Of a stretch of 21,920 nt of DNA, positions 4,288 through 14,256 are shown piece after piece. A program made the translations under genes and the position numbers. Positions within the stretch are counted from its first letter, which is position 1. Every line of letters begins with the position of its first letter. Origin of the DNA: Paracoccaceae bacterium (GTDB lineage: Bacteria; Pseudomonadota; Alphaproteobacteria; Rhodobacterales; Rhodobacteraceae); the NCBI GenBank assembly GCA_002683355.1, contig NYTF01000022.1, positions 21,850-43,769 on the forward strand, read 5' to 3'. A model generated the notes under the pieces. That model did no database searches. It saw nothing but the letters and a program-made list of their open reading frames with translations, and was not told where the DNA came from.

Positions 4288-5343
4288 TTAGGATGCGTCG
4301 AAGTCTAAAACTATATCTTCAGTTTGTGGGACAGCTTGACAGGCTAATACAAAACCCGCCTCTATTTCCCAGTCTTCTAACGAAAAGTTAGCCTTCATTG
4401 TTACATCACCTTTAGTTATTTTACATCTACAGGTGCAACACATACCACCCTTGCATGAGAAGGGCACATCTATCCCATGTGCTTGCGCGGCATCAATTAT
4501 ATTATCGTTATGTTTGTCAAAGACAAATGTCCGGTGAGTCCCATCTAAAATTATTTCTATATTTGATTTAATTTCAGCTGTTACCTCAGTTCTTTCTGAC
4601 TTCTTTAATTTTGGCTTCCGACCTAGATAGAATCTTTCGGTGTTAATTTTTGATTCATTTAATCCATTTTCTATTAGAGTGTCACTGACATTATTGATCA
4701 TAGAGTCTGGACCACAAATAAAAACACCATCTACTTCAAGATCGATCATTTTTTTTAAAATCAATTGATTCACTTTGTGTTGGTCAATCCGGCCGTTCAA
4801 TAATTCTACATCTTGGCCTTGTTTGCTTAGAATATGAATAACGTTGAGCCGCCCAAGAAAAATGTCTTTTAAATTATCCAACTCTTTATGAAACATAATG
4901 CTTTCTATTGTTTTGTTTCCATATAGTAGAGTAATTTCAGCAGATGTATTATTTTTTAAAGTACTTGAAATTATAGAAATAATAGGAGTAATTCCAGATC
5001 CTGCAGCTACCATTAAAAGCTTTGCTTCATTTTTTTTTATAAATCTTCCATTAGGACCCATAACCTCTAGGGTCATTCCGGGCTTTAGTTCATTAAAAAT
5101 ATAGTTTGAGAACAGACCATCGTGTACACGTTTTACCCCAATAGCTAAGGGTTCATTCTCTGAGCTGCATATGGAATAGGATCTTCGTTCTTCGATATTA
5201 TTAAAATTACGTCTAACTGTAATATATTGACCTGATTGAAAGGAAAACTTTAATTTTGGCGGAACATCAAACTCAACTCTTTTTGAATTATAAGTTAAAG
5301 GTTGAACCTCATTTACTTTTAATTTTGAAAAAATATTCACCAT
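4288..5343 (-). CDS. paaE: Phenylacetyl-CoA epoxidase reductase subunit PaaE
   Basis: PaaE passes electrons from NAD(P)H through FAD and a [2Fe-2S] centre to the PaaAC oxygenase that epoxidises phenylacetyl-CoA. The protein is 351 residues, close to the roughly 356 of the E. coli enzyme. The N-terminal two thirds is a ferredoxin-NADP reductase module: RRSYSICS at about 53-60 for flavin binding, and AAGSGITP at 113-120 plus FICGPDSM near 208-215 for nucleotide binding. The C-terminal plant-type ferredoxin domain keeps all four cluster cysteines at 297, 302, 305 and 335 (C-x4-C-x2-C...C). It starts at ATG 5343, three bases after the paaD stop, and is the last gene of paaABCDE. Confidence 0.95.
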   Translation of the reverse strand: MVNIFSKLKVNEVQPLTYNSKRVEFDVPPKLKFSFQSGQYITVRRNFNNIEERRSYSICSSENEPLAIGVKRVHDGLFSNYIFNELKPGMTLEVMGPNGRFIKKNEAKLLMVAAGSGITPIISIISSTLKNNTSAEITLLYGNKTIESIMFHKELDNLKDIFLGRLNVIHILSKQGQDVELLNGRIDQHKVNQLILKKMIDLEVDGVFICGPDSMINNVSDTLIENGLNESKINTERFYLGRKPKLKKSERTEVTAEIKSNIEIILDGTHRTFVFDKHNDNIIDAAQAHGIDVPFSCKGGMCCTCRCKITKGDVTMKANFSLEDWEIEAGFVLACQAVPQTEDIVLDFDAS

Positions 5344-5346
5344 TGT

Positions 5347-5868
5347 TCAAATACATTTGAAATAGTCAAAGGGCTCATAGCAACTATTGCATCGGTATTG
5401 TGCTTTGCATGCGGTTGACCCAAATTCGGATAATTTTTCTGTATCCTGTGAGGAGCATCTAGGACATTTAACCTCTACATTACCAAATAATGCCATTTTT
5501 GAAGATGCCTTCACAGGTGGCGCAATTCCGTAGTCTTTAAGTTTATTTCTGCCGTCCTCACTTATCCAATCTGTTGTCCAAGGTGGAGAAAGGACACGAT
5601 TAATTGAAGTTTTAAAACCTGCTTTTAAAAGCGCAGCTTCAATAGCTAGCTCAATGGCTAAAACTGCAGGACAGCCTGAATATGTTGGTGAAACAGACAC
5701 TATAGCTTTTCCATCTTGTAATTCTAAGTCTCTTAATATTCCTAACTCTCCAATTGTCACACATGGAATTTCTGGATCTAAAACGTTCGAAGCAACTGAC
5801 CATGCGATTTCTTGATCATTTACAGAACCATTTTTATGTTGGTTTTCTTTCATCAGGCTTTTTACCAT
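5347..5868 (-). CDS. paaD: Phenylacetate pathway protein PaaD (MIP18/DUF59 family with zinc finger)
   Basis: PaaD is a MIP18-family protein thought to help mature the metal centres of the PaaABCE complex; it is not part of the purified catalytic complex. The 173 residues contain the DUF59 core DPEIPCVTIGELGILRD, then VSPTYSGCPA, and the diagnostic C-terminal cysteine cluster with CPRC, FGSTACKAQYRCNSC and EPFDYFKC, as in E. coli PaaD. The ATG at 5868 overlaps the end of paaC by 7 bp; the in-frame ATG at 5853, MKEN..., is a possible later start. The nearest functional relative outside the pathway would be SufT, but the C-terminal finger and the position in the operon settle the call. Confidence 0.93.
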   Translation of the reverse strand: MVKSLMKENQHKNGSVNDQEIAWSVASNVLDPEIPCVTIGELGILRDLELQDGKAIVSVSPTYSGCPAVLAIELAIEAALLKAGFKTSINRVLSPPWTTDWISEDGRNKLKDYGIAPPVKASSKMALFGNVEVKCPRCSSQDTEKLSEFGSTACKAQYRCNSCYEPFDYFKCI

Positions 5869-6614
5869 TTAGCACCTGGATGAGCTCTGTGCACAGATTG
5901 CATTGAGGCTAGAAGGTGACCTAACTCTTCTCCATGCAAACCAAGCCGACCACCTGAGAGCTCCCCTTCAAATTCGGGATAAGGAACAAAGGCCATTTTA
6001 AAAATAGAATTAATTTCTTTTTCCCATTTAGATTTTAGAGCTTTTCTGCTGGGTAAAATATCTTTTTTTATAAAATAAATATTGTTTGGTGTATCAAAAA
6101 ATAATTCATTTGTATAAATGTGCAAAGCATCAACGGCTTCTAGAAGCTTTTTATTACTTTCAGTTGTGCCATCTCCTAGTCTAATAACCCATTCCCCAGA
6201 ATGTCGAATATGATAGGACATTTCTTTTTTCGCTTTTCCTGCTACACCTACGATTATTTCATCTTTAGAATTTAATGCTTCATTCCAATACAATTTCATA
6301 AAAGTTGAAAAGTATAATTGCTTTAAAACCGTGTGAGCAAAATTAACATTTGGCCTTTCAACAAGTAAACAATTTAAAAACTCACGCTCGTCTCTGAGGA
6401 AAGCTAAATCATCTTCAGATTTATTATTACTTTCAATTGTGCCAGCATAACTATATAAAGTTCTTGCAGTCCCTATCAAATCAAGGCCCATATTTGGTAG
6501 AGCTAAGTCTTCCTCTAGCATAGGAGCATGGCCACACCACTCTGATAATCTATGACCTAATATCAAGTTATCATCTGCCAATTCTAATAATGCTTGAGTT
6601 AAATTGGAAGACAT
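5862..6614 (-). CDS. paaC: Phenylacetyl-CoA epoxidase structural subunit PaaC
   Basis: PaaC is the ferritin-like partner of PaaA in the phenylacetyl-CoA 1,2-epoxidase; in studied enzymes it has lost the metal site and acts as a scaffold. The 250 residues carry LADDNLILGHRLSEWCGHAP near the start, AHTVLKQLYFSTFMKLYW in the middle, MSYHIRHSGEWVIRLGDGT, and end with LGHLLASMQSVHRAHPGAKW, all characteristic of PaaC. It starts at an ATG that shares one base with the paaB stop (TAATG on the minus strand), so translation is coupled. Confidence 0.95.
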   Translation of the reverse strand: MSSNLTQALLELADDNLILGHRLSEWCGHAPMLEEDLALPNMGLDLIGTARTLYSYAGTIESNNKSEDDLAFLRDEREFLNCLLVERPNVNFAHTVLKQLYFSTFMKLYWNEALNSKDEIIVGVAGKAKKEMSYHIRHSGEWVIRLGDGTTESNKKLLEAVDALHIYTNELFFDTPNNIYFIKKDILPSRKALKSKWEKEINSIFKMAFVPYPEFEGELSGGRLGLHGEELGHLLASMQSVHRAHPGAKW

Positions 6615-6898
6615 TACATATGGCCTATATCTTCTGGAATATCATAAAAAGTTGGATGTCTGTAGATTTTATCTTCAGATGGCTCAAAGTTTTCATCTGC
6701 TTTATCCGGGTCGGAAGCGGTAATTGATATCGATGGAACGACCCATATTGAAGTGCCTTCATTTCGTCTTGTATAAACATCTCGTGCAGCATTTATCGCC
6801 ATAGTTTTGTCACTCGCATGAAGACTGCCAACGTGCTTGTGACTTAAGCCATTCCTTGGCCTGATGAATACTTCCCACAAAGGTGTTGTTTTGGTCAT
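6614..6898 (-). CDS. paaB: Phenylacetyl-CoA epoxidase bridging subunit PaaB
   Basis: This 94-residue small subunit joins the PaaAC heterodimers in the epoxidase complex. The sequence reads WEVFIRPRNGLSHKHVGSLH, then DKTMAINAARDVYTRRNEG and SIWVVPS, which is the conserved PaaB pattern, and length agrees with the family (about 95). It lies 29 bp after paaA and shares its stop with the paaC start. Confidence 0.95.
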   Translation of the reverse strand: MTKTTPLWEVFIRPRNGLSHKHVGSLHASDKTMAINAARDVYTRRNEGTSIWVVPSISITASDPDKADENFEPSEDKIYRHPTFYDIPEDIGHM

Positions 6899-6927
6899 TT
6901 TAAATCCGGCATAAATTCTGGTTTAAC

Positions 6928-7911
6928 TTATTCCGCAGCAATTTTTTCTGCTCTACGTTTTTCAGCATACGCGTGAGCAGCGTCTCGAACCCATTCACCT
7001 TCGTCCCAGGCTTTTTTGCGAGCTGTTATCCTATCACGAGCCATTGGTCCATTACCTTTAACTACATTCCAAAATTCTGCCCAATCAATTGGTCCATGAT
7101 CATACCCTTCCTTATCGTCATTCCACCTGAGATCTTTATCAGGAATTTTTAAATCAATAAAAGTTGCTTGTGGAACTGTGGCATTAATAAATTTTTGCCT
7201 AAGGTCGTCGTTAGTGAATCGTTTTATTTTCCAACGCATTGATTGATCCGAATGAGTGCTTTCTGCATCGTGAGGCCCAAACATCATTACGCTTGGCCAC
7301 CACCACCGATTTAAAGCATCTTGAGCCATCTGCTTTTGCTTTTCTGTACCTTGTGCTAAAGACATCATTAACTCGTATCCCTGGCGTTGGTGAAAACTTT
7401 CTTCTTTGCAGACTCTTATCATTGCGCGAGCATATGGACCGTAAGAACACCTGCACAATGGGATTTGGTTCATTATAGCTGCGCCATCAACCAACCAGCC
7501 TATAGCACCAATATCTGCCCATGATAATGTTGGATAATTAAAAATTGATGAAAATTTTGCTTTCCCGGTGACTAATTGTTCGGTTAGTTCTTCACGTGAT
7601 ACGCCTAAAGTTTCTGCGGCAGAATATAAATACAGTCCGTGCCCACCTTCGTCCTGAACTTTGGCTAAAAGCGCTGCTTTTCGCCGTAATGAGGGAGCTC
7701 TGGTAACCCAGTTTCCTTCGGGCAACATACCTACGATCTCAGAATGTGCATGTTGCGCAATTTGCCTAACTAGCATTTTCTTATATGCTTGAGGCATAAC
7801 ATCATTGGGTTCGATTTTTTCTTCTGCATCGATCCGAGCCTGAAAAGCGTCAAGAAACTCTTGAGACTCTTCGATTTGCGTGTCTGAATTTATTAAACCT
7901 TGCGAATACAT
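6928..7911 (-). CDS. paaA: Phenylacetyl-CoA epoxidase catalytic subunit PaaA
   Basis: PaaA is the di-iron oxygenase subunit that inserts one oxygen atom across C1-C2 of the phenylacetyl-CoA ring, the step committing phenylacetate to degradation. The 327-residue protein retains likely iron ligands: a Glu near 58 (HAHSE), Glu88 and His91 in QDEGGH, and Glu171 and His174 in [24 protein letters not shown] and the [16 protein letters not shown] region are typical of PaaA. It is first in paaABCDE, 86 bp from the divergent thioesterase gene, behind a TTGAAA-N17-TATAAT promoter that overlaps the proposed PaaX operator. Confidence 0.96.
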
Positions 7912-7937: not shown

Positions 7938-7966
7938 ATTATACGTTACGAAAATAAAAATTTCAA
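7938..7966 (-). promoter_or_regulatory. Promoter of paaABCDE (sigma-70 type)
   Basis: Read on the minus strand: -35 TTGAAA (7966-7961), a 17-bp spacer, and a consensus -10 TATAAT (7943-7938), 26 bp before the paaA ATG. The spacer contains TTCGTAAC, one half of the proposed operator, ending one base before the -10, so a bound repressor would block polymerase. Confidence 0.65.
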
Positions 7967-7980
7967 ACTATTTTTGTAAC
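7945..7980. promoter_or_regulatory. Candidate PaaX operator, copy 1 (paaA / thioesterase promoter region)
   Basis: Imperfect inverted repeat GTTACGAA (7945-7952), 20 bp, TTTGTAAC (7973-7980). An element with the same half-sites and the same 20-bp spacing lies at 12453-12488 in the other divergent paa promoter region. PaaX is the only transcription regulator encoded among these genes and is known in E. coli to bind long bipartite sites at paa promoters. Assignment to PaaX is inference; the repeat itself is seen. Confidence 0.68.
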
Positions 7981-7997
7981 AAAATTGGGAAAAAGAT

Positions 7998-8426
7998 ATG
8001 AATTCGTTCAACAAGTCAGATATTATGGCTCTTTTAAAGAGCGTCTTTGCACCGTGGGTTCAAGATTTAAAACTTCAGGTGACAGAAATTAATAATAAAG
8101 ATGTCCAATTTTATCTCCCAGAAAATGACAACTTAGTCAGAAGTGGTGGTGATGGGCCTCCTGTAATTTGTGGTCAGGCAATTGCCTCTGCTGCGGATAC
8201 GTGCTGTGTTCTCGCACTGACTGCCATTAATAAGAAATTCCGAAACTGCACTACAGTTGATATGACTAATCATTTTATGAGACCGTTGAGTAATACAGGA
8301 ATTGAAATAAACGTTGAGATATTGTCTAACGGCAGGAAGATGGCGGTACTTCGAGCAAATTTTAAAAATAAATCGGGTAAATTAGCGGCTACAGCTATTT
8401 GCTCATTTGCGTACCTAGACACGTAA
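7998..8426 (+). CDS. PaaI-like hotdog-fold acyl-CoA thioesterase, atypical
   Basis: This 142-residue protein resembles the PaaI/hotdog thioesterase superfamily. GQAIASAADTCCVLAL matches the central helix with its catalytic-type Asp, followed by TTVDMTNHFMRPL, equivalent to the family strand ending in LRP, and a C-terminal AATAICSFAYL strand. The usual HGG turn before the helix is CGQ here, so its activity may differ. It sits alone, divergent from paaABCDE behind the shared operator, and converges on paaX. A role in removing acyl groups from CoA among phenylacetate intermediates is likely but not shown. It differs clearly from the second, canonical PaaI at 12521. The start ATG 7998 follows TTGGGAAAAAGAT, a weak ribosome site. 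Confidence 0.78.
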   Translation: MNSFNKSDIMALLKSVFAPWVQDLKLQVTEINNKDVQFYLPENDNLVRSGGDGPPVICGQAIASAADTCCVLALTAINKKFRNCTTVDMTNHFMRPLSNTGIEINVEILSNGRKMAVLRANFKNKSGKLAATAICSFAYLDT

Positions 8427-8446
8427 TGCACTTGATAATTCTTAGC

Positions 8447-9247
8447 TTAGAATCGTTTTGGGGTCTTAAAATTTCCAAAGTTTATCACTGACTTTTCAGT
8501 TGGTAAATTTAACCAGGTGTCAGCCTGCGGTGTTAATCCATCATATATATTTTTTACCATAAATCTGATATTATAACCTTTCCAGCTTTTTGGCGTAAAT
8601 TCGTTTGGAACTTCGGGAAATTTCAAGACTATCTTCCGCCAATTATGTATCACCAAAGTTCTCGCTATCATTGCTTCCAATGGGTTTAAGTTAACAAATT
8701 TTATTGGTGATAACAGGTCAATTAATTGGTTAATTTCTTCTAAGTAGCCTTTTGGTAGTAACTTATAACATGTCGTTTCAGATAACATATTTATTTTCCC
8801 TTCAAAAATTAGGGAACCCTTAGGAACATCGTGAGATATTGGTACGATTGAAACACCTGGTTGGAGGTTAAAACCATAAGGCTCAGTATCAAAGTCTGGA
8901 GTAATTATTAATTTCCATTTTTTTTCAGATGTTATTTTTGGTGGTGAATAAATTATTTTTGAAGCTGGACCAAACTCTTTTAAACCACGATCACCCAGAC
9001 GATAAATGGTATTTTTGCCAATTTTATATCTCTCTATCCAATTATCATTGGTAAGCCGTGATAGTGCTGTTCTCAAAGTTCCAGCCTCTATACCCATGGC
9101 TTGCATTAAAACTTTAAGGCGAGAGGCTTCCACCTCACCACCTTTTTCTATGATGCTATCACCAAAAAAAGTAATAATTAACGACCATACCCTCAATCTA
9201 CTTTGATTATGTAGATGCTTTAAAAGTGGCTCTGTACTAGTGCTCAT
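8447..9247 (-). CDS. paaX: Phenylacetate-responsive repressor PaaX
   Basis: PaaX is a GntR-like winged-helix repressor that releases DNA when it binds phenylacetyl-CoA. The 266 residues begin with the PaaX pattern RLRVWSLIITFFGDSI, continue with AGTLRTALSRLTNDNWIER as recognition helix and wing region, and have the long PaaX effector domain including EEINQLIDLLSPIKFVNLNP and ARTLVIHNWRKIVLKFPEVP. Length is near the family norm of about 300, slightly short at the C-terminus. Its ATG lies inside the end of paaZ (11-bp overlap), so it is the last gene of P450-paaZ-paaX and would repress its own synthesis if it binds the operator at 12453-12488. Confidence 0.9.
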   Translation of the reverse strand: MSTSTEPLLKHLHNQSRLRVWSLIITFFGDSIIEKGGEVEASRLKVLMQAMGIEAGTLRTALSRLTNDNWIERYKIGKNTIYRLGDRGLKEFGPASKIIYSPPKITSEKKWKLIITPDFDTEPYGFNLQPGVSIVPISHDVPKGSLIFEGKINMLSETTCYKLLPKGYLEEINQLIDLLSPIKFVNLNPLEAMIARTLVIHNWRKIVLKFPEVPNEFTPKSWKGYNIRFMVKNIYDGLTPQADTWLNLPTEKSVINFGNFKTPKRF

Positions 9248-11237
9248 ATTTCACCATTGTTAGTAAGCCATACTCCGCCACTTGCTCATCGTTCTGATTA
9301 AAAATAATTACATCCCATTTTATTTCACCGTAGGTATCGGTGCGCCGAGTTTTTCGCCCAACTGTTAGGCTAACCTTGATTTCATCATTTGGGGTGACAG
9401 GTTTTTGAAAACTTAAATATTCAATGCCTGTATTAGCTAAAACTGGCCCTTCATCTGCCAAAACAAATAGACCAGCAGCGAAGCTTAACAATAAATAACC
9501 GTGTGCCACTCTGCCAGGAAAAAATGGATTAGCTTTTGCAGCTTTCTCATCCATATGTGCATAAAATGTATCTCCAGTAAACTTGGCAAAATGTTCAATA
9601 TCATCTAAAGATATCTTCCTTGTTTCTGTCCATAAAGTTTCACCAATTGAAAGATCATTAAAGGTTTTTGAGAATGGGTGTGGTTCTTGTGTATTTGTCT
9701 TAGCTCCTTTTACCCATTGCTTGTTGATGCCTGATAAAATCTCAGGAGTCCCTTGTACTGAGGTTCTTTGCATATAATGTTTTATGCCCCTTATACCTCC
9801 TTGTTCTTCACCGCCACCAGCTCTACCAGGTCCTCCGTGTGTTAGATGTGGAAGAGGTGAGCCATGTCCAGTAGACTCTTCACCACTTTCTCTGTTGTTG
9901 ATATAAATCCTGCCGTTCCAAGCGGCAATGTCAGTAACAACTTCATTAGCAAATTGTGCATCAAAGGTAAAAATTGACGAAACTAAACTACCACCACCCA
10001 ATTTTATAAGTTTGCAGGCTTCATTTGGATTGTCATAAGTCATAATTGTTGTTACTGGCCCAAATGCTTCTGTTTCATGAGCTATTCCACCTTTCAAGGC
10101 ATTTTGACTATAATATAAGTGTGGGCTAACAAACGCTCCCTTTTTTGGAGCTATTCCGTTAAAAATTAGTGTATTTTCGTTAGACATTTTTGATATAATT
10201 TTCAAAACTTCTTGTTTTTGGCCTTCTGATACAAGCGCACCCATTTGTGTTTCAATATTTTTGGGGTTGCCAATTTTTACTTTTGAAAGCTCTTCGACTA
10301 AAGCTTCACTGACGTCGTTTAAAGAGTCATGTGGAATGATTAAACGTCTCATTGCCGTGCATTTTTGACCAGCTTTGGTTGTAATTTCTGCCAAAGCCTC
10401 TTTAATAAATAGATCAAACTCTGGTGAGCCTGCTTTTGCATCTATTCCTAGTATTGCAGCGTTTAAACTATCCTGTTCTGATATAAATTTTACTGAATTT
10501 TCGATCAGGTTTTTACTAGATTTTAAGTATTCAGCTGTTTTTTTAGACCCAGTAAACGAAATTACATCTTGAGGTCCTAAATGATTTAGTAATGAACCGA
10601 CTCCTCCTGCAATGAATTGAATAGAACCTTTCGGAAATAGATTGCTTTCGATTATCATCCTAAAACATGCTTCAGCAAGGTAAGCTGTGTCACTGGCTGG
10701 TTTTATGATAGTTGGCATGCCAGCTAAAAAACTTTGGCTCAGTTTCTCGAGCATTCCCCAGATTGGAAAGTTAAAAGCGTTTATCTGTACAGCAACACCT
10801 TGTTTAGGCACCTGTATGTGCTGCCCTAGAAAAGTGCCATTGCGTGATAGTTGCTCAACTGGTCCATCTAAATAAATTTTACCATCCGGCATTTCTTTAC
10901 GGCCTTTGGAAGCATAAACTCTTAAAGTTCCAATGCCACCATCAATATCAATCCAACCATCTTTCCGTGTTGCGCCCGTTAGAGGGTTTAATTCATAAAG
11001 CTCTTCTTTTCTATCTGATAAATAATTTGCAAGCGCTTTTAATATCTTTGCTCTTTCGTGGAAGCCCATTTGGCGTAAATTTTTACCACCTACAAAATTA
11101 GCATGATAAATCATTTTCTGTGAATCCAATGATGTGCCAATCATGCCTATTTCTAATCCAGTAGCAGCTTCATAAAGTTTTTTGGTTTTCCCATTAGGAA
11201 TATGCCAATTTCCGTACGCATAACTTTCAATTCTCAT
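9237..11237 (-). CDS. paaZ: Bifunctional ring-opening enzyme PaaZ (aldehyde dehydrogenase + oxepin-CoA hydrolase)
   Basis: PaaZ hydrolyses oxepin-CoA with its C-terminal MaoC-like hydratase domain and oxidises the resulting semialdehyde with its N-terminal NADP-dependent aldehyde dehydrogenase domain. At 666 residues it is near the 681 of E. coli PaaZ. The dehydrogenase domain (about 1-510) shows [13 protein letters not shown], Glu254 in FISEQDS and the catalytic Cys293 in [12 protein letters not shown]. The hydratase domain (about 530-666) has the paired Asp556 and His561 in [12 protein letters not shown] and [11 protein letters not shown]. Both active sites therefore look intact. The ATG directly abuts the P450 stop (TAA then ATG, zero spacing), so the gene is translationally coupled to it; paaX overlaps its 3' end. 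Confidence 0.95.
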
Positions 11238-12440
11238 TTAACTTTCCAATCTAGCATATAAGTGTGTTAATCCCCTAAACCGAATTCTTTCGCTCCAAAG
11301 TGGTTTTGAACTTAAATTATAATTAGGATATTTATTTAAAAATTTACTAATTGCTATGCGAGCTTCCATTTTGGCAAGAGAGAAACCTACACAGTGATGA
11401 GCACCACCTGCAAATGCCAAGTGTCGGTTTGGAGTTCTGTCGATTATTAATTCATCAGGTTGAGTAAATTGGAGTGGGTCTCGGTTTGCTGCTCCAATAC
11501 AAAGGTGTAAATTAGTATTTGAGGGTATTGTTTTACCAGAGAGAGTCACTTCACAAGCAGTTTCTCTATTTCCAAATTGATTAGGAGATAAAAACCTTAG
11601 AAATTCATCAATAGCCGAATTTAACATTTCTGGATTATTAATTAACTTTTCTTTTGCTTTTGGGTAAAAGCTTAAGGCCCAAAGAGCATTCCCAATAAGA
11701 TTTGTTGTTGTTTCATGTCCGGCGTTAAGTATGAAAATGCAATTTTGTAATAGTTCAGTCTCACTAAGGTTGCTTTCTTCAGCCATTATCATTCGAGTAA
11801 GAACATCGGTATCGGGATTGCCTGGTTTTCTGCGCCTTTCATCGGTTATAAGCTTTAAAAATGCTTTAAATTCTGAAACTGCTGTGTTGCCTTCAGAAAG
11901 CTGTTTTTCAGTTGGAGATGGTTCCAACGCGCCAAGAATAGATAATGACCAATTCCTTAAAGGACCTCTCAAAGAATGAGGAATATTAAATAGATTACCA
12001 ATAACCTCCACAGGTATTTTCATCGCGAATTTTTCTATCAAATTTACTTCGTCCTCTATGGTGTTTAATAATTCGTCAATTAATACTTCTAATCCTGGTT
12101 CCATTAATGCTACTGCTTTTGGGTTCATTGCGGCAGTCATGATTTTACGAACTCGAGGATGTAATGGAGGATCATTAAATACCAAAGATGTTGTGTGATG
12201 TTCAAATAGGGGAGTATTACCAAATTTTTCACCAAAACTTAATTTTTTATCAGATTTGAAATTTTTCGTATCTCGATAAATCATATTTAAATCTGCCCAG
12301 GAGCTGATTAAAACTGAATTGTCTGGTAGAGTTTTAACAGGCTCAGTTTGTCTTAAACTTGAGTAATATACGAATGGATCCTCGTGAAATCCCTCGGGCA
12401 AATTGTTTAAATCAAAGTGGCTGGTATCAACGATACTCAT
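11238..12440 (-). CDS. Cytochrome P450, soluble bacterial type, leading the paaZ-paaX operon
   Basis: This is a complete 400-residue P450. The C-helix region DPPLHPRVRKIM is at about 90-101, the I-helix oxygen-activation motif AGHETT at 240-245, the K-helix ExxR is Glu279-Arg282, and the heme loop FAGGAHHC is at 343-350 with the thiolate ligand Cys350 followed by VGFSLAKMEARI. There is no membrane anchor and no fused reductase, so it needs external electrons; no dedicated ferredoxin or ferredoxin reductase gene is in the window, and PaaE is the only nearby flavin/iron-sulfur reductase. Substrate unknown. Being first gene of an operon with paaZ and paaX, and under the shared operator, ties it to aromatic catabolism. 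P450 is not a part of the standard phenylacetate pathway. Confidence 0.93.
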   Translation of the reverse strand: MSIVDTSHFDLNNLPEGFHEDPFVYYSSLRQTEPVKTLPDNSVLISSWADLNMIYRDTKNFKSDKKLSFGEKFGNTPLFEHHTTSLVFNDPPLHPRVRKIMTAAMNPKAVALMEPGLEVLIDELLNTIEDEVNLIEKFAMKIPVEVIGNLFNIPHSLRGPLRNWSLSILGALEPSPTEKQLSEGNTAVSEFKAFLKLITDERRRKPGNPDTDVLTRMIMAEESNLSETELLQNCIFILNAGHETTTNLIGNALWALSFYPKAKEKLINNPEMLNSAIDEFLRFLSPNQFGNRETACEVTLSGKTIPSNTNLHLCIGAANRDPLQFTQPDELIIDRTPNRHLAFAGGAHHCVGFSLAKMEARIAISKFLNKYPNYNLSSKPLWSERIRFRGLTHLYARLES

Positions 12441-12452
12441 AAAATTACCAAT

Positions 12453-12488
12453 GTTACGAACTTTTTTAAATATTGACTACTTTGTAAC
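12453..12488. promoter_or_regulatory. Candidate PaaX operator, copy 2 (P450-paaZ-paaX / paaI-paaK promoter region)
   Basis: GTTACGAA (12453-12460), 20 bp, TTTGTAAC (12481-12488): the same half-sites and spacing as at 7945-7980, with an unrelated 20-bp centre. A further TTTGTAAA at 12490-12497 extends the right side as a 9-bp direct repeat. It lies across both divergent promoters. Confidence 0.7.
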
Positions 12489-12497
12489 ATTTGTAAA
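12469..12497 (-). promoter_or_regulatory. Predicted promoter of P450-paaZ-paaX
   Basis: Minus strand: -35 TTTACA (12497-12492), 17-bp spacer, -10 AATATT (12474-12469), leaving a leader of about 20 bases before the ATG at 12440. Four or five of six consensus bases match in each box. The GTTACAAA half-site sits in the spacer. No convincing ribosome site precedes the P450 start. Confidence 0.42.
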
Positions 12498-12501
12498 TAC
12501 T
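12473..12501 (+). promoter_or_regulatory. Predicted promoter of paaI-paaK
   Basis: Plus strand: -35 TTGACT (12473-12478), 17-bp spacer holding the operator half TTTGTAAC, -10 AATACT (12496-12501). It overlaps the opposing P450 promoter almost completely, so the two may compete and both would be covered by one repressor. Confidence 0.48.
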
Positions 12502-12520: not shown

Positions 12521-12955
12521 ATGATGAAAGCTCAAGAGCGCGCCGAAAAATGTGCAAGAATAATGTTAAAGAGTGATAGTGCAACTAAGCATGTTGGAGT
12601 AAAACTTGAAAAAATTCGACCAGGGTATGCGGAGATGTCTATGAAAGTGGAAGCGTATCATTTAAATGGTCACGCCATTTGTCACGGTGGGTTTATATTT
12701 ACACTAGCTGATAGTGCGTTTGCTTTTGCTTGTAATAGTTATAACGAACTAACTGTAGCTCAATTTAACACAATTAATTTTTTGGAAACAGTTGGAGTTG
12801 GAGAGGTTTTAATTGCTACTGCTGAAGAAACTAATAAACGACGCCGGACAGGCATTTACGATGTTCGTGTCGTTGGTTTTGAAAATCGAGTAATCGCAGA
12901 AATGCGCGGATGCTCAAGAACGCTGAATGGCAAACATTTTGAAGAGGAGGAGTAA
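12521..12955 (+). CDS. paaI: Hydroxyphenylacetyl-CoA-type thioesterase PaaI
   Basis: PaaI is a hotdog thioesterase that hydrolyses ring-hydroxylated phenylacetyl-CoA and similar dead-end esters to free trapped CoA. The 144 residues match E. coli PaaI well: NGHAICHGGFIFTLADSAFA contains the HGG turn and the Asp of the active site, then FACNSYN, INFLETVGVGEVLIATAEE and the TGIYDVRV strand. Start at ATG 12521 (or 12524); the upstream TTGGGAAAAATTGGATAA is a weak ribosome site. Its stop shares a base with the paaK start (TAATG). Confidence 0.92.
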   Translation: MMKAQERAEKCARIMLKSDSATKHVGVKLEKIRPGYAEMSMKVEAYHLNGHAICHGGFIFTLADSAFAFACNSYNELTVAQFNTINFLETVGVGEVLIATAEETNKRRRTGIYDVRVVGFENRVIAEMRGCSRTLNGKHFEEEE

Positions 12956-14256
12956 TGAAAAATTTGACTCCGGATAAGAAAAGCTTGGATCCTATTGAAA
13001 TTGCAAGCCTTGATGAAATATCAGATTTACAATTTAAACGCATGCGATGGTCACTGGAGCATGCGTATAAGAATGTTAAGTTCTACAAGAAAAAGTTTGA
13101 TGCTATTGGTGTTCACCCATCTGATTTGAAAACTATATCAGACATTTCATTATTTCCGTTTACTGAAAAAAAAGATTTGCGGGAAAATTACCCTTTTAAT
13201 ATGTTTGCTGTTCCAAAAAGTCAGATCTCTAGAATTCATGCATCCTCGGGTACTACAGGAAAACCAACAGTTGTTGGTTATACCAAAGGTGATATTGATA
13301 ATTGGGCAAGCTTAGTAGCAAGATCAATGCGAGCAAGTGGTACAAAATCTGGCGATACTGTGCATATTTCGTATGGATACGGTTTATTTACTGGAGGACT
13401 GGGTGCTCATTATGGAGCTGAAAAACTGGGGTGTACGATAGTACCTATTTCTGGGGGGATGACCCAAAGACAGGTAACATTAATTGAGGATTTTAAAGCT
13501 ACTACAATTATGGTTACGCCTTCCTATATGTTGTCGATATTAGACGAGTACAAAGCACAGGGCCGAGATCCTCGTGATAGTTGCCTTGAGATTGGTATAT
13601 TTGGAGCTGAGCCATGGACAAATTCGATGCGAAAAGAAGTAGAAAACGCATTTGATATGCATGCTGTAGATATTTACGGTTTATCAGAAGTTATGGGACC
13701 GGGTATCGCAAATGAATGTGTGGAAACAAAGGATGGTTTGCATATCTGGGAGGATCATTTTTACCCTGAAATTATCGATCCTCAATCGCAAAAACCAAGT
13801 GCAGATGGTTCGATGGGTGAATTAGTTTTCACAACTTTAACTAAGGAGGGAATGCCTGTTATTCGTTACAGAACTCGAGATTTAACTAGATTATTACCAG
13901 GCACAGCTCGCTCTATGCGTCGGATGGAAAAGGTTACAGGCCGTTCAGATGATATGATAATTTTAAGAGGAGTTAATATTTTTCCAACCCAAATCGAAGA
14001 ACAATTATTAACTATAAAAGAACTATCACCACATTTTCAAATAGAGTTAACTAAAGATAATCGCTTAGATAAAATGTTAGTTCATACAGAATGCTCAATT
14101 GGTAATGAGAATTACGATAAGAGATTAAAATCTAGTATGTTACTTGAGCAAAAGATCAAAGGTAATATTGGGATATCGGTTGAGGTTATTGTACATGATC
14201 CAGATGGTGTTCCTAGATCTCAGGGTAAAGCAGTAAGGGTGGTAGATAATAGGTAA
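12955..14256 (+). CDS. paaK: Phenylacetate-CoA ligase PaaK
   Basis: PaaK activates phenylacetate with ATP and CoA to phenylacetyl-CoA, the entry step and the maker of the PaaX inducer. The 433 residues (family about 430-440) carry the AMP-binding loop SSGTTGKPTVVGYT at 97-110, IFGAEPW near 215, YGLSEVMGPG at 241-250, YRTRDLTRLLPG near 305 and the C-terminal GRSDDMIILRGVNIFPTQIE hinge. The ATG follows GAGGAGGAG, a strong ribosome site, and overlaps the paaI stop. It ends 13 bp from the convergent kinase gene with no hairpin between. Confidence 0.95.
   Translation: MKNLTPDKKSLDPIEIASLDEISDLQFKRMRWSLEHAYKNVKFYKKKFDAIGVHPSDLKTISDISLFPFTEKKDLRENYPFNMFAVPKSQISRIHASSGTTGKPTVVGYTKGDIDNWASLVARSMRASGTKSGDTVHISYGYGLFTGGLGAHYGAEKLGCTIVPISGGMTQRQVTLIEDFKATTIMVTPSYMLSILDEYKAQGRDPRDSCLEIGIFGAEPWTNSMRKEVENAFDMHAVDIYGLSEVMGPGIANECVETKDGLHIWEDHFYPEIIDPQSQKPSADGSMGELVFTTLTKEGMPVIRYRTRDLTRLLPGTARSMRRMEKVTGRSDDMIILRGVNIFPTQIEEQLLTIKELSPHFQIELTKDNRLDKMLVHTECSIGNENYDKRLKSSMLLEQKIKGNIGISVEVIVHDPDGVPRSQGKAVRVVDNR

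What the first reader, a model, noticed from the sequence alone, without database searches (positions are those of the whole stretch)
7945..12488. Identical long bipartite element in both divergent paa promoter regions
GTTACGAA-N20-TTTGTAAC occurs at 7945-7980 and 12453-12488 with the same orientation and exactly 20 bp between half-sites, while the 20-bp centres are unrelated. In each case the half-sites fall in the spacer of a predicted promoter, and both regions divide a minus-strand operon from a plus-strand thioesterase gene. The only regulator encoded among these genes is PaaX. E. coli PaaX binds long bipartite sites, but I do not recall this sequence as its described site, so it may be a lineage-specific PaaX operator controlling all four transcription units.
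Basis: partly seen in the sequence, partly recalled or inferred. Interest (0 to 1): 0.72.

Follow-up and report, generated by a model that had tools for sequence, protein, structure and literature searches.

The report
PaaX operator for phenylacetate-breakdown genes
The paired DNA signal is very probably the landing site of PaaX, a repressor of phenylacetate-degradation genes; many relatives carry it in front of one gene cluster, and in this marine genus it has also taken the place of a different repressor's site in front of a second cluster.

Summary
In detail: GTTACGAA-N20-TTTGTAAC lies at 7945-7980 and 12453-12488, the only exact matches in the (incomplete) genome.

The paaA copy is not lineage-specific. 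The same 36-bp element stands before paaA in 42 of 44 promoters from other genera of the family. A scan of one genome each for 84,980 species found 67 places, 60 at paa genes. The core RTTAC-N25..27-GTAAY lies before paaA or paaJ-paaA in 54 of 57 family genomes with PaaX and 0 of 4 without. Two genomes with a very different PaaX have changed half-sites. Layout matches the E. coli PaaX site GATTC-N27-GAATC. A PaaX operator over the -35 box is the best reading; binding is untested, and some PaaX-bearing relatives lack the element.

The second copy is what is new in this genus. In relatives the promoter facing paaI carries a PaaR (TetR-type) box: 30 of 31 junctions, the exception being a congener. 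No PaaR orthologue was found in the three congener genomes. So PaaX seems to have taken over PaaR's target and, through paaZ-paaX, its own gene; elsewhere the two seem to divide the pathway.

The parts
7945..7980 (.). Bipartite element, copy 1: half-sites 7945-7952 and 7973-7980; between paaA (minus) and a thioesterase gene (plus); the copy shared with many genera
12453..12488 (.). Bipartite element, copy 2: half-sites 12453-12460 and 12481-12488; between P450-paaZ-paaX (minus) and paaI-paaK (plus); genus-specific, where relatives have a PaaR box
7938..7966 (-). Predicted paaA promoter TTGAAA-N17-TATAAT; -35 centred on copy 1, one base between half-site and -10
   Evidence: similar layout in relatives
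12473..12501 (+). Predicted paaI promoter TTGACT-N17-AATACT (9 of 12); half-site in the spacer
12469..12497 (-). Predicted P450-paaZ-paaX promoter TTTACA-N17-AATATT (9 of 12)
8447..9247 (-). PaaX-like repressor, last gene of P450-paaZ-paaX
   Evidence: Pfam PaaX and PaaX_C over cut-off; NCBIfam TIGR02277 matched below its cut-off
6928..7911 (-). paaA, first gene of paaABCDE
   Evidence: Pfam; TIGR02156 over cut-off
4288..6898 (-). paaB (6614-6898), paaC (5862-6614), paaD (5347-5868), paaE (4288-5343)
   Evidence: NCBIfam: paaB, paaC, paaD over cut-off, paaE best match below cut-off (376 against 421 bits); Pfam for paaD and paaE
7998..8426 (+). 4HBT thioesterase gene divergent from paaA
   Evidence: Pfam; no NCBIfam model over cut-off
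9237..11237 (-). paaZ
   Evidence: TIGR02278 over cut-off
11238..12440 (-). cytochrome P450, first gene of P450-paaZ-paaX
12521..12955 (+). paaI thioesterase
   Evidence: TIGR02286 over cut-off
12955..14256 (+). paaK phenylacetate-CoA ligase
   Evidence: TIGR02155 over cut-off

Best explanation
The element is the operator of PaaX. A PaaX dimer reads two outward-facing GTTACRAA half-sites about three helical turns apart (5-mer centres 30-32 bp apart), lies across the -35 box and the spacer, and keeps RNA polymerase off. Phenylacetyl-CoA, made by PaaK, releases it. In relatives PaaX guards the paaABCDE unit, and the TetR-type PaaR guards the divergent paaZ(-paaX) and paaI(-paaJ)-paaK units. In this genus PaaR and its box are gone, a PaaX operator stands in the P450|paaI promoter, and PaaX controls both unit pairs and its own gene. 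Shown here: the sequence, its position, its distribution, its link with PaaX in the family sample, and the pattern of PaaR boxes and genes. Inferred: binding, repression, the inducer (from E. coli PaaX) and the order of the evolutionary steps.
For: Strict pattern in 394 family genomes: 40 have it, reversed control 3. 36 of the 40 have it before paaA (33; 29-90 bp) or before paaJ-paaA (3; about 1.3 kb before paaA) (paaJ between them); the other 4 have no PaaX over the Pfam cut-off. 42 of 44 paaA promoters score at least 14 of 16; TTAC and the A at position 8 are invariant in those 84 half-sites. Core RTTAC-N25..27-GTAAY: 54 of 57 with PaaX, 0 of 4 without; each other spacing triplet tested gives 0-2 of 61. 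60 of 67 scan hits at paa genes. G109 and G265, on a PaaX branch of length 3.5, have RTCAC-N26-GTGAC at the corresponding place. E. coli paaA has TGATTC-N27-GAATC, the published PaaX site (PMC9493321 passage). PaaR box at 30 of 31 junctions facing paaI, absent in the congener; 0 of 44 paaA promoters have it. PaaR: 63-67% identical proteins in three relatives besides the query's own genome; in the 3 congeners matches are 21-35% identical, mostly partial, E no better than 1.2e-6.
Against: No binding data. PaaX also occurs without the element: of 12 named plasmid paaA loci fetched (of 158 records with a match) only Dinoroseobacter shibae has it, and it is very likely the same genome as G035. Paracoccus denitrificans (same order), Mesorhizobium AR07, Pannonibacter and Pseudomonas VLB120 carry an annotated PaaX-type gene without it. 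3 of 57 PaaX+ family genomes lack the core (G278, G109, G265), though all three have a degenerate or altered form; 4 of 13 further loci of untested PaaX status lack it. Upstream DNA was examined for 74 of the 192 other paaA-bearing family genomes; the rest were covered only by the strict pattern, which did not hit them. Only 4 PaaX-lacking genomes could be tested, and genomes are not independent. The window PaaX is below the NCBIfam equivalog cut-off (135 against 264.55 bits). In E. coli the paaZ side and the paaX promoter show only a single half-site each. G084 has 20 matches, four of the five listed not at paa genes. The congener genomes are 76-91% complete, so PaaR absence is not absolute.
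Confidence: 0.86

Rival explanations
1. Another regulator, not PaaX, binds the element at paaA promoters of the family.
For: Several PaaX-bearing loci lack the element, one of them in the same order; no direct binding data.
Against: The core is missing in 4 of 4 tested paaA genomes without PaaX and present in 54 of 57 with it; half-sites differ in the two genomes with a very different PaaX; the geometry equals the E. coli PaaX site; paaX lies beside the element in several loci.
Confidence: 0.1
2. It is a PaaR (TetR-type) operator variant.
For: In this genus it occupies the PaaR box position at paaI.
Against: PaaR has its own box at 30 of 31 junctions, none of which scores above 11 of 16 for this element; 0 of 44 paaA promoters has a PaaR-like box; no PaaR orthologue was found in the congeners.
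Confidence: 0.02
3. It is a repeat or RNA hairpin without an operator role.
For: G084 has 20 matches; the four inspected away from paaA sit in a longer palindrome, one exactly between two gene ends; the arms could pair.
Against: 37 of the 40 genomes have a single match; at paaA there is most often one base between it and the -10 box, with the -35 at its centre, so most of it would lie upstream of the transcript; the centres differ in sequence.
Confidence: 0.02

Closest known systems
E. coli PaaX operator (TGATTC-N27-GAATCA)
   Same: Two outward inverted half-sites of the form G.T.C about three helical turns apart, before paaA, with a PaaX-family repressor encoded in the paa locus
   Different: Half-site GTTACRAA instead of TGATTC; N26 (25-27) between 5-mers instead of N27; here centred on the predicted -35 box of paaA, and paaX sits in a paaZ operon
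PaaR (TetR) box of Burkholderia cenocepacia (ACCGACCGGTCGGTT)
   Same: Controls the same pathway; a like sequence, TTGACCNNNNGGTC, sits at the paaI -35 box of relatives
   Different: Compact 15-bp palindrome for a different protein family; not found in this genus's paa promoters
PaaX/PaaR co-occurrence reported in 2026 (PMC13186573)
   Same: Reports both regulators in one paa context in several groups, alphaproteobacteria included
   Different: Passages seen give no operator sequences (0 occurrences of 'binding site' in the main text); here the DNA sites suggest which regulator controls which unit

Membership tests
PaaX operator | Bound by PaaX and released by phenylacetyl-CoA | not testable with these tools
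   needs gel shift or footprint
PaaX operator | Long bipartite inverted repeat in paa promoters | tested here: met
PaaX operator | E. coli half-site TGATTC | tested here: not met
   half-site is GTTACRAA; only the G.T.C frame and the spacing agree
PaaX operator | Occurs with PaaX, absent without it | tested here: inconclusive
   54 of 57 against 0 of 4 in the family sample, but at least four named plasmid loci have an annotated PaaX-type gene and no element
PaaX protein family (regulator 8447-9247) | Pfam PaaX and PaaX_C over cut-off | tested here: met
   64.1 and 45.6 bits against 24.8 and 22; matches solved chains 8a39 and 3l09
PaaX protein family (regulator 8447-9247) | NCBIfam equivalog TIGR02277 cut-off | tested here: not met
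   135.3 bits against 264.55
PaaR operator | Compact GACCNNNNGGTC palindrome and a PaaR gene | tested here: not met

The most novel reading that the evidence does not exclude
A division of labour seen in relatives, PaaX on paaABCDE and PaaR on paaZ/paaI-J-K, collapsed in this genus into one self-controlled PaaX circuit: PaaR was lost and a PaaX operator arose where the PaaR box had been, with the paaI -35 box kept. This would be a natural case of operator replacement with the ancestral state still visible in the relatives.
Probability: 0.68. Interest if true: 0.62.

Novelty: new variant of a known kind. Interest (0 to 1): 0.56.

Why it matters
It gives a testable operator for PaaX in a large group of mostly marine bacteria, and an explanation in DNA sites of why PaaX and PaaR can occur together in one pathway (a co-occurrence reported as new in 2026). 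It also offers a comparative system for how one repressor takes over another's target. Cultured relatives with the paaA site (for example Pelagimonas phthalicica, Thalassovita litoralis and Albibacillus kandeliae) make the tests practical.

Tried and rejected
PaaR as owner of the element: rejected. A genus-only operator: rejected for the paaA copy. A third copy at a distant paaJ-like thiolase of the three congeners: no GTTAC-type core near it in the stretches scanned; one core-like match lies some 8.8 kb away in L166. The search for related loci with PaaX in genome contigs found nothing. 11 of 12 named plasmid paaA loci lack the element, so it is not the operator of every alphaproteobacterial PaaX. 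In 13 further paaA loci whose PaaX status was not tested, 9 have the core. Papers: PMC9493321, PMC2770484, PMC4424350, PMC13186573, PMC11387232 and PMC10878099 were seen as passages only; all others as search listings. Ten paper searches: no listing or passage seen describes this element; most subscription papers and the RegPrecise database were not searchable here.
Full report
OBSERVATION. Both copies are exact: GTTACGAA-N20-TTTGTAAC at 7945-7980 and 12453-12488. In the whole genome only these two places match exactly; five more match with 2 mismatches. The two congeners held, G100 and G101, keep them: G100 has both; G101 has the paaA copy, and its contig ends inside the second. In the three genomes the pattern with N18-22 gives 2, 2 and 1 places and no match to the reversed control. 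The paaA copy of both congeners has 19 bp between half-sites. Their contigs have the same lengths as records titled Rhodobacteraceae bacterium SAT2 and Paracoccaceae bacterium cluster2_bin.19, and contigs of other members match named Rhodobacterales in length (Rhodosalinus, Albibacillus, Dinoroseobacter). The family is therefore taken to be Rhodobacteraceae in the wide sense, and the genus to be uncultured.

GENES. Minus strand: paaABCDE (4288-7911) and P450-paaZ-paaX (8447-12440; neighbours abut or overlap). Plus strand: a 4HBT thioesterase (7998-8426) and paaI-paaK (12521-14256). G100 has the same order; G101 has it up to the end of its contig.

THE ELEMENT AT paaA IS SHARED BY MANY GENERA. 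Across 394 family genomes (393 genera) the strict pattern GTTACRAA-N18..21-TTYGTAAC is found in 40; the reversed control in 3. 194 of the 394 have paaA at E 1e-60. Of the 40, 33 have the element 29-90 bp before paaA and three (G274, G178, G318) about 1.3 kb before it, with paaJ between. The other four are G006, G013, G157 (not among the paaA matches) and G029 (paaA on another contig); none of these has PaaX over the Pfam cut-off. With a scoring search I examined 44 promoters of the 48 genomes whose paaA is at least 73% identical: 42 score at least 14 of 16, with spacer 20 in 38, 19 in 3 and 21 in 1; TTAC and the A at position 8 never vary in those 84 half-sites; G072 and G278 have weaker forms in place. 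Left out were the two of this genus, G033 (contig ends at paaA) and G014 (no PaaX, no element). Allowing a -10 box only next to the element, one with a fitting -35 was found for 33 of 42 elements: one base lies between element and -10 in 30, and the -35 centre lies within 1 bp of the element centre in 29.

SCAN OF ALL SPECIES. One pattern (GTTACRAA-N19..20-TTYGTAACRTAT) was scanned against one genome each for 84,980 species: 67 stretches. Its last four bases come from paaA promoters and so favour them, and some records are the same genomes as above. In 58 the element is within 400 bp upstream of a paa gene. Two more belong there: L332 lies before paaJ-paaA, and L320 has the same element letters and contig length as G062, where it stands before paaA. 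Of the remaining 7, six are in unrelated bacteria (Runella, Cyclobacteriaceae, two Bacteroidetes records, Erysipelotrichaceae, Patescibacteria) and one in a Rhodobacteraceae stretch without a paa gene. A few true hits are outside Rhodobacterales by record title (Pseudovibrio, Hyphomicrobiales, Rhizobiaceae group, Granulosicoccaceae).

LINK WITH PaaX. Of 61 paaA genomes outside this genus with upstream DNA and a PaaX test, the core [AG]TTAC-N25..27-GTAA[CT] is present in 54 of 57 with PaaX and 0 of 4 without (Fisher p 6.7e-5, genomes taken as independent). The 18 other spacing triplets tested hold 0-2 of 61 each. The three PaaX+ exceptions are G278 (degenerate form) and G109 and G265, which have ATCAC-N26-GTGAC and GTCAC-N26-GTGAC about 1.3 kb before paaA. 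G109 and G265 carry a PaaX on a branch of length 3.5 with a different recognition-helix region. The window PaaX groups with a clade most of whose members carry RTALSRL (support 96/77), on a branch of 1.49. Identity of the window PaaX to PaaX of other genera is at most 39% for the matches that cover most of the protein.

KNOWN SITE. E. coli PaaX is reported to bind TGATTC(N27)GAATCA (PMC9493321, passage); K-12 has TGATTC-N27-GAATC before paaA, and only single half-sites on the paaZ side and before paaX. GATTC-N27-GAATC and GTTAC-N26-GTAAC share the frame G.T.C and the span within 1 bp; this alignment is my inference.

THE SECOND COPY REPLACES A PaaR BOX. Among the fetched loci, 31 have a divergent paaZ, P450 or paaX | paaI junction. 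30 carry TTGACC-N4-GGTC or a close form, and none of these scores above 11 of 16 for the PaaX-type element; the one without the box is congener L041, with 16 of 16. The window is a further case of the latter. One junction with a box (L055) has no paaR gene in its stretch. The box resembles the tested B. cenocepacia PaaR operator (passages), and a TetR-type gene follows paaK in most of these loci. In the three congeners the matches to that TetR protein are 21-35% identical, mostly partial, E no better than 1.2e-6; three relatives have 63-67% identical proteins. None of 44 paaA promoters has a PaaR-like box. In the other type of cluster, paaJ-paaA promoters can carry both kinds of site, as in Dinoroseobacter shibae.

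MECHANISM. PaaX would cover the -35 box and spacer and be released by phenylacetyl-CoA (inferred from E. coli). Because paaX is the last gene of P450-paaZ-paaX, the second copy would make PaaX control itself. Relatives appear to split the pathway between two repressors that, by published work on other species, sense the same molecule; the genus appears to have merged this into one.

LIMITS. No binding data. The element is not general to PaaX: 11 of 12 named plasmid paaA loci lack it, among them four with an annotated PaaX-type gene, one of these (Paracoccus denitrificans) in the same order. Upstream DNA was examined for 74 of 192 other paaA-bearing family genomes; the rest only by the strict pattern. 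The window PaaX falls below the NCBIfam equivalog cut-off. Congener genomes are 76-91% complete. The PaaX search covered 80 of the 111 genomes first listed.

Noticed in passing
window 11238-12440; L085-L104: A cytochrome P450 heads the paaZ-paaX operon; in 10 of 20 fetched loci with a 56-61% identical P450 it directly precedes paaZ. Its role in phenylacetate breakdown is unexplained.
   Followed up: partly
G084: L270-L273: This genome has 20 matches to the element pattern; the four inspected away from paaA sit in a longer palindrome (ATAGGTTAC...GTAACCTAT), one of them exactly between two gene ends. Looks like a repeat family related to the operator.
   Followed up: partly
L274 1245-1280: G247 has a second element copy about 124 bp before a gene of the fluoroacetyl-CoA thioesterase (FlK) family.
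   Followed up: partly
L276, L277: G265 and G109 have RTCAC-type half-sites and a very different PaaX; a natural pair for specificity tests.
   Followed up: partly
L165 12580-13779: The best paaJ-like thiolase of this genome lies on another contig beside unrelated genes, without an element in that stretch; paaF, paaG and paaH were not searched for.
   Followed up: partly
L351, L354: Pannonibacter and Rhizobium AB2/73 have a PaaR-like box shortly before paaA itself, the reverse of the pattern in the family sample.
   Followed up: no
L308, L211: Two other lineages share the divergent thioesterase|paaA layout with the element between them.
   Followed up: no
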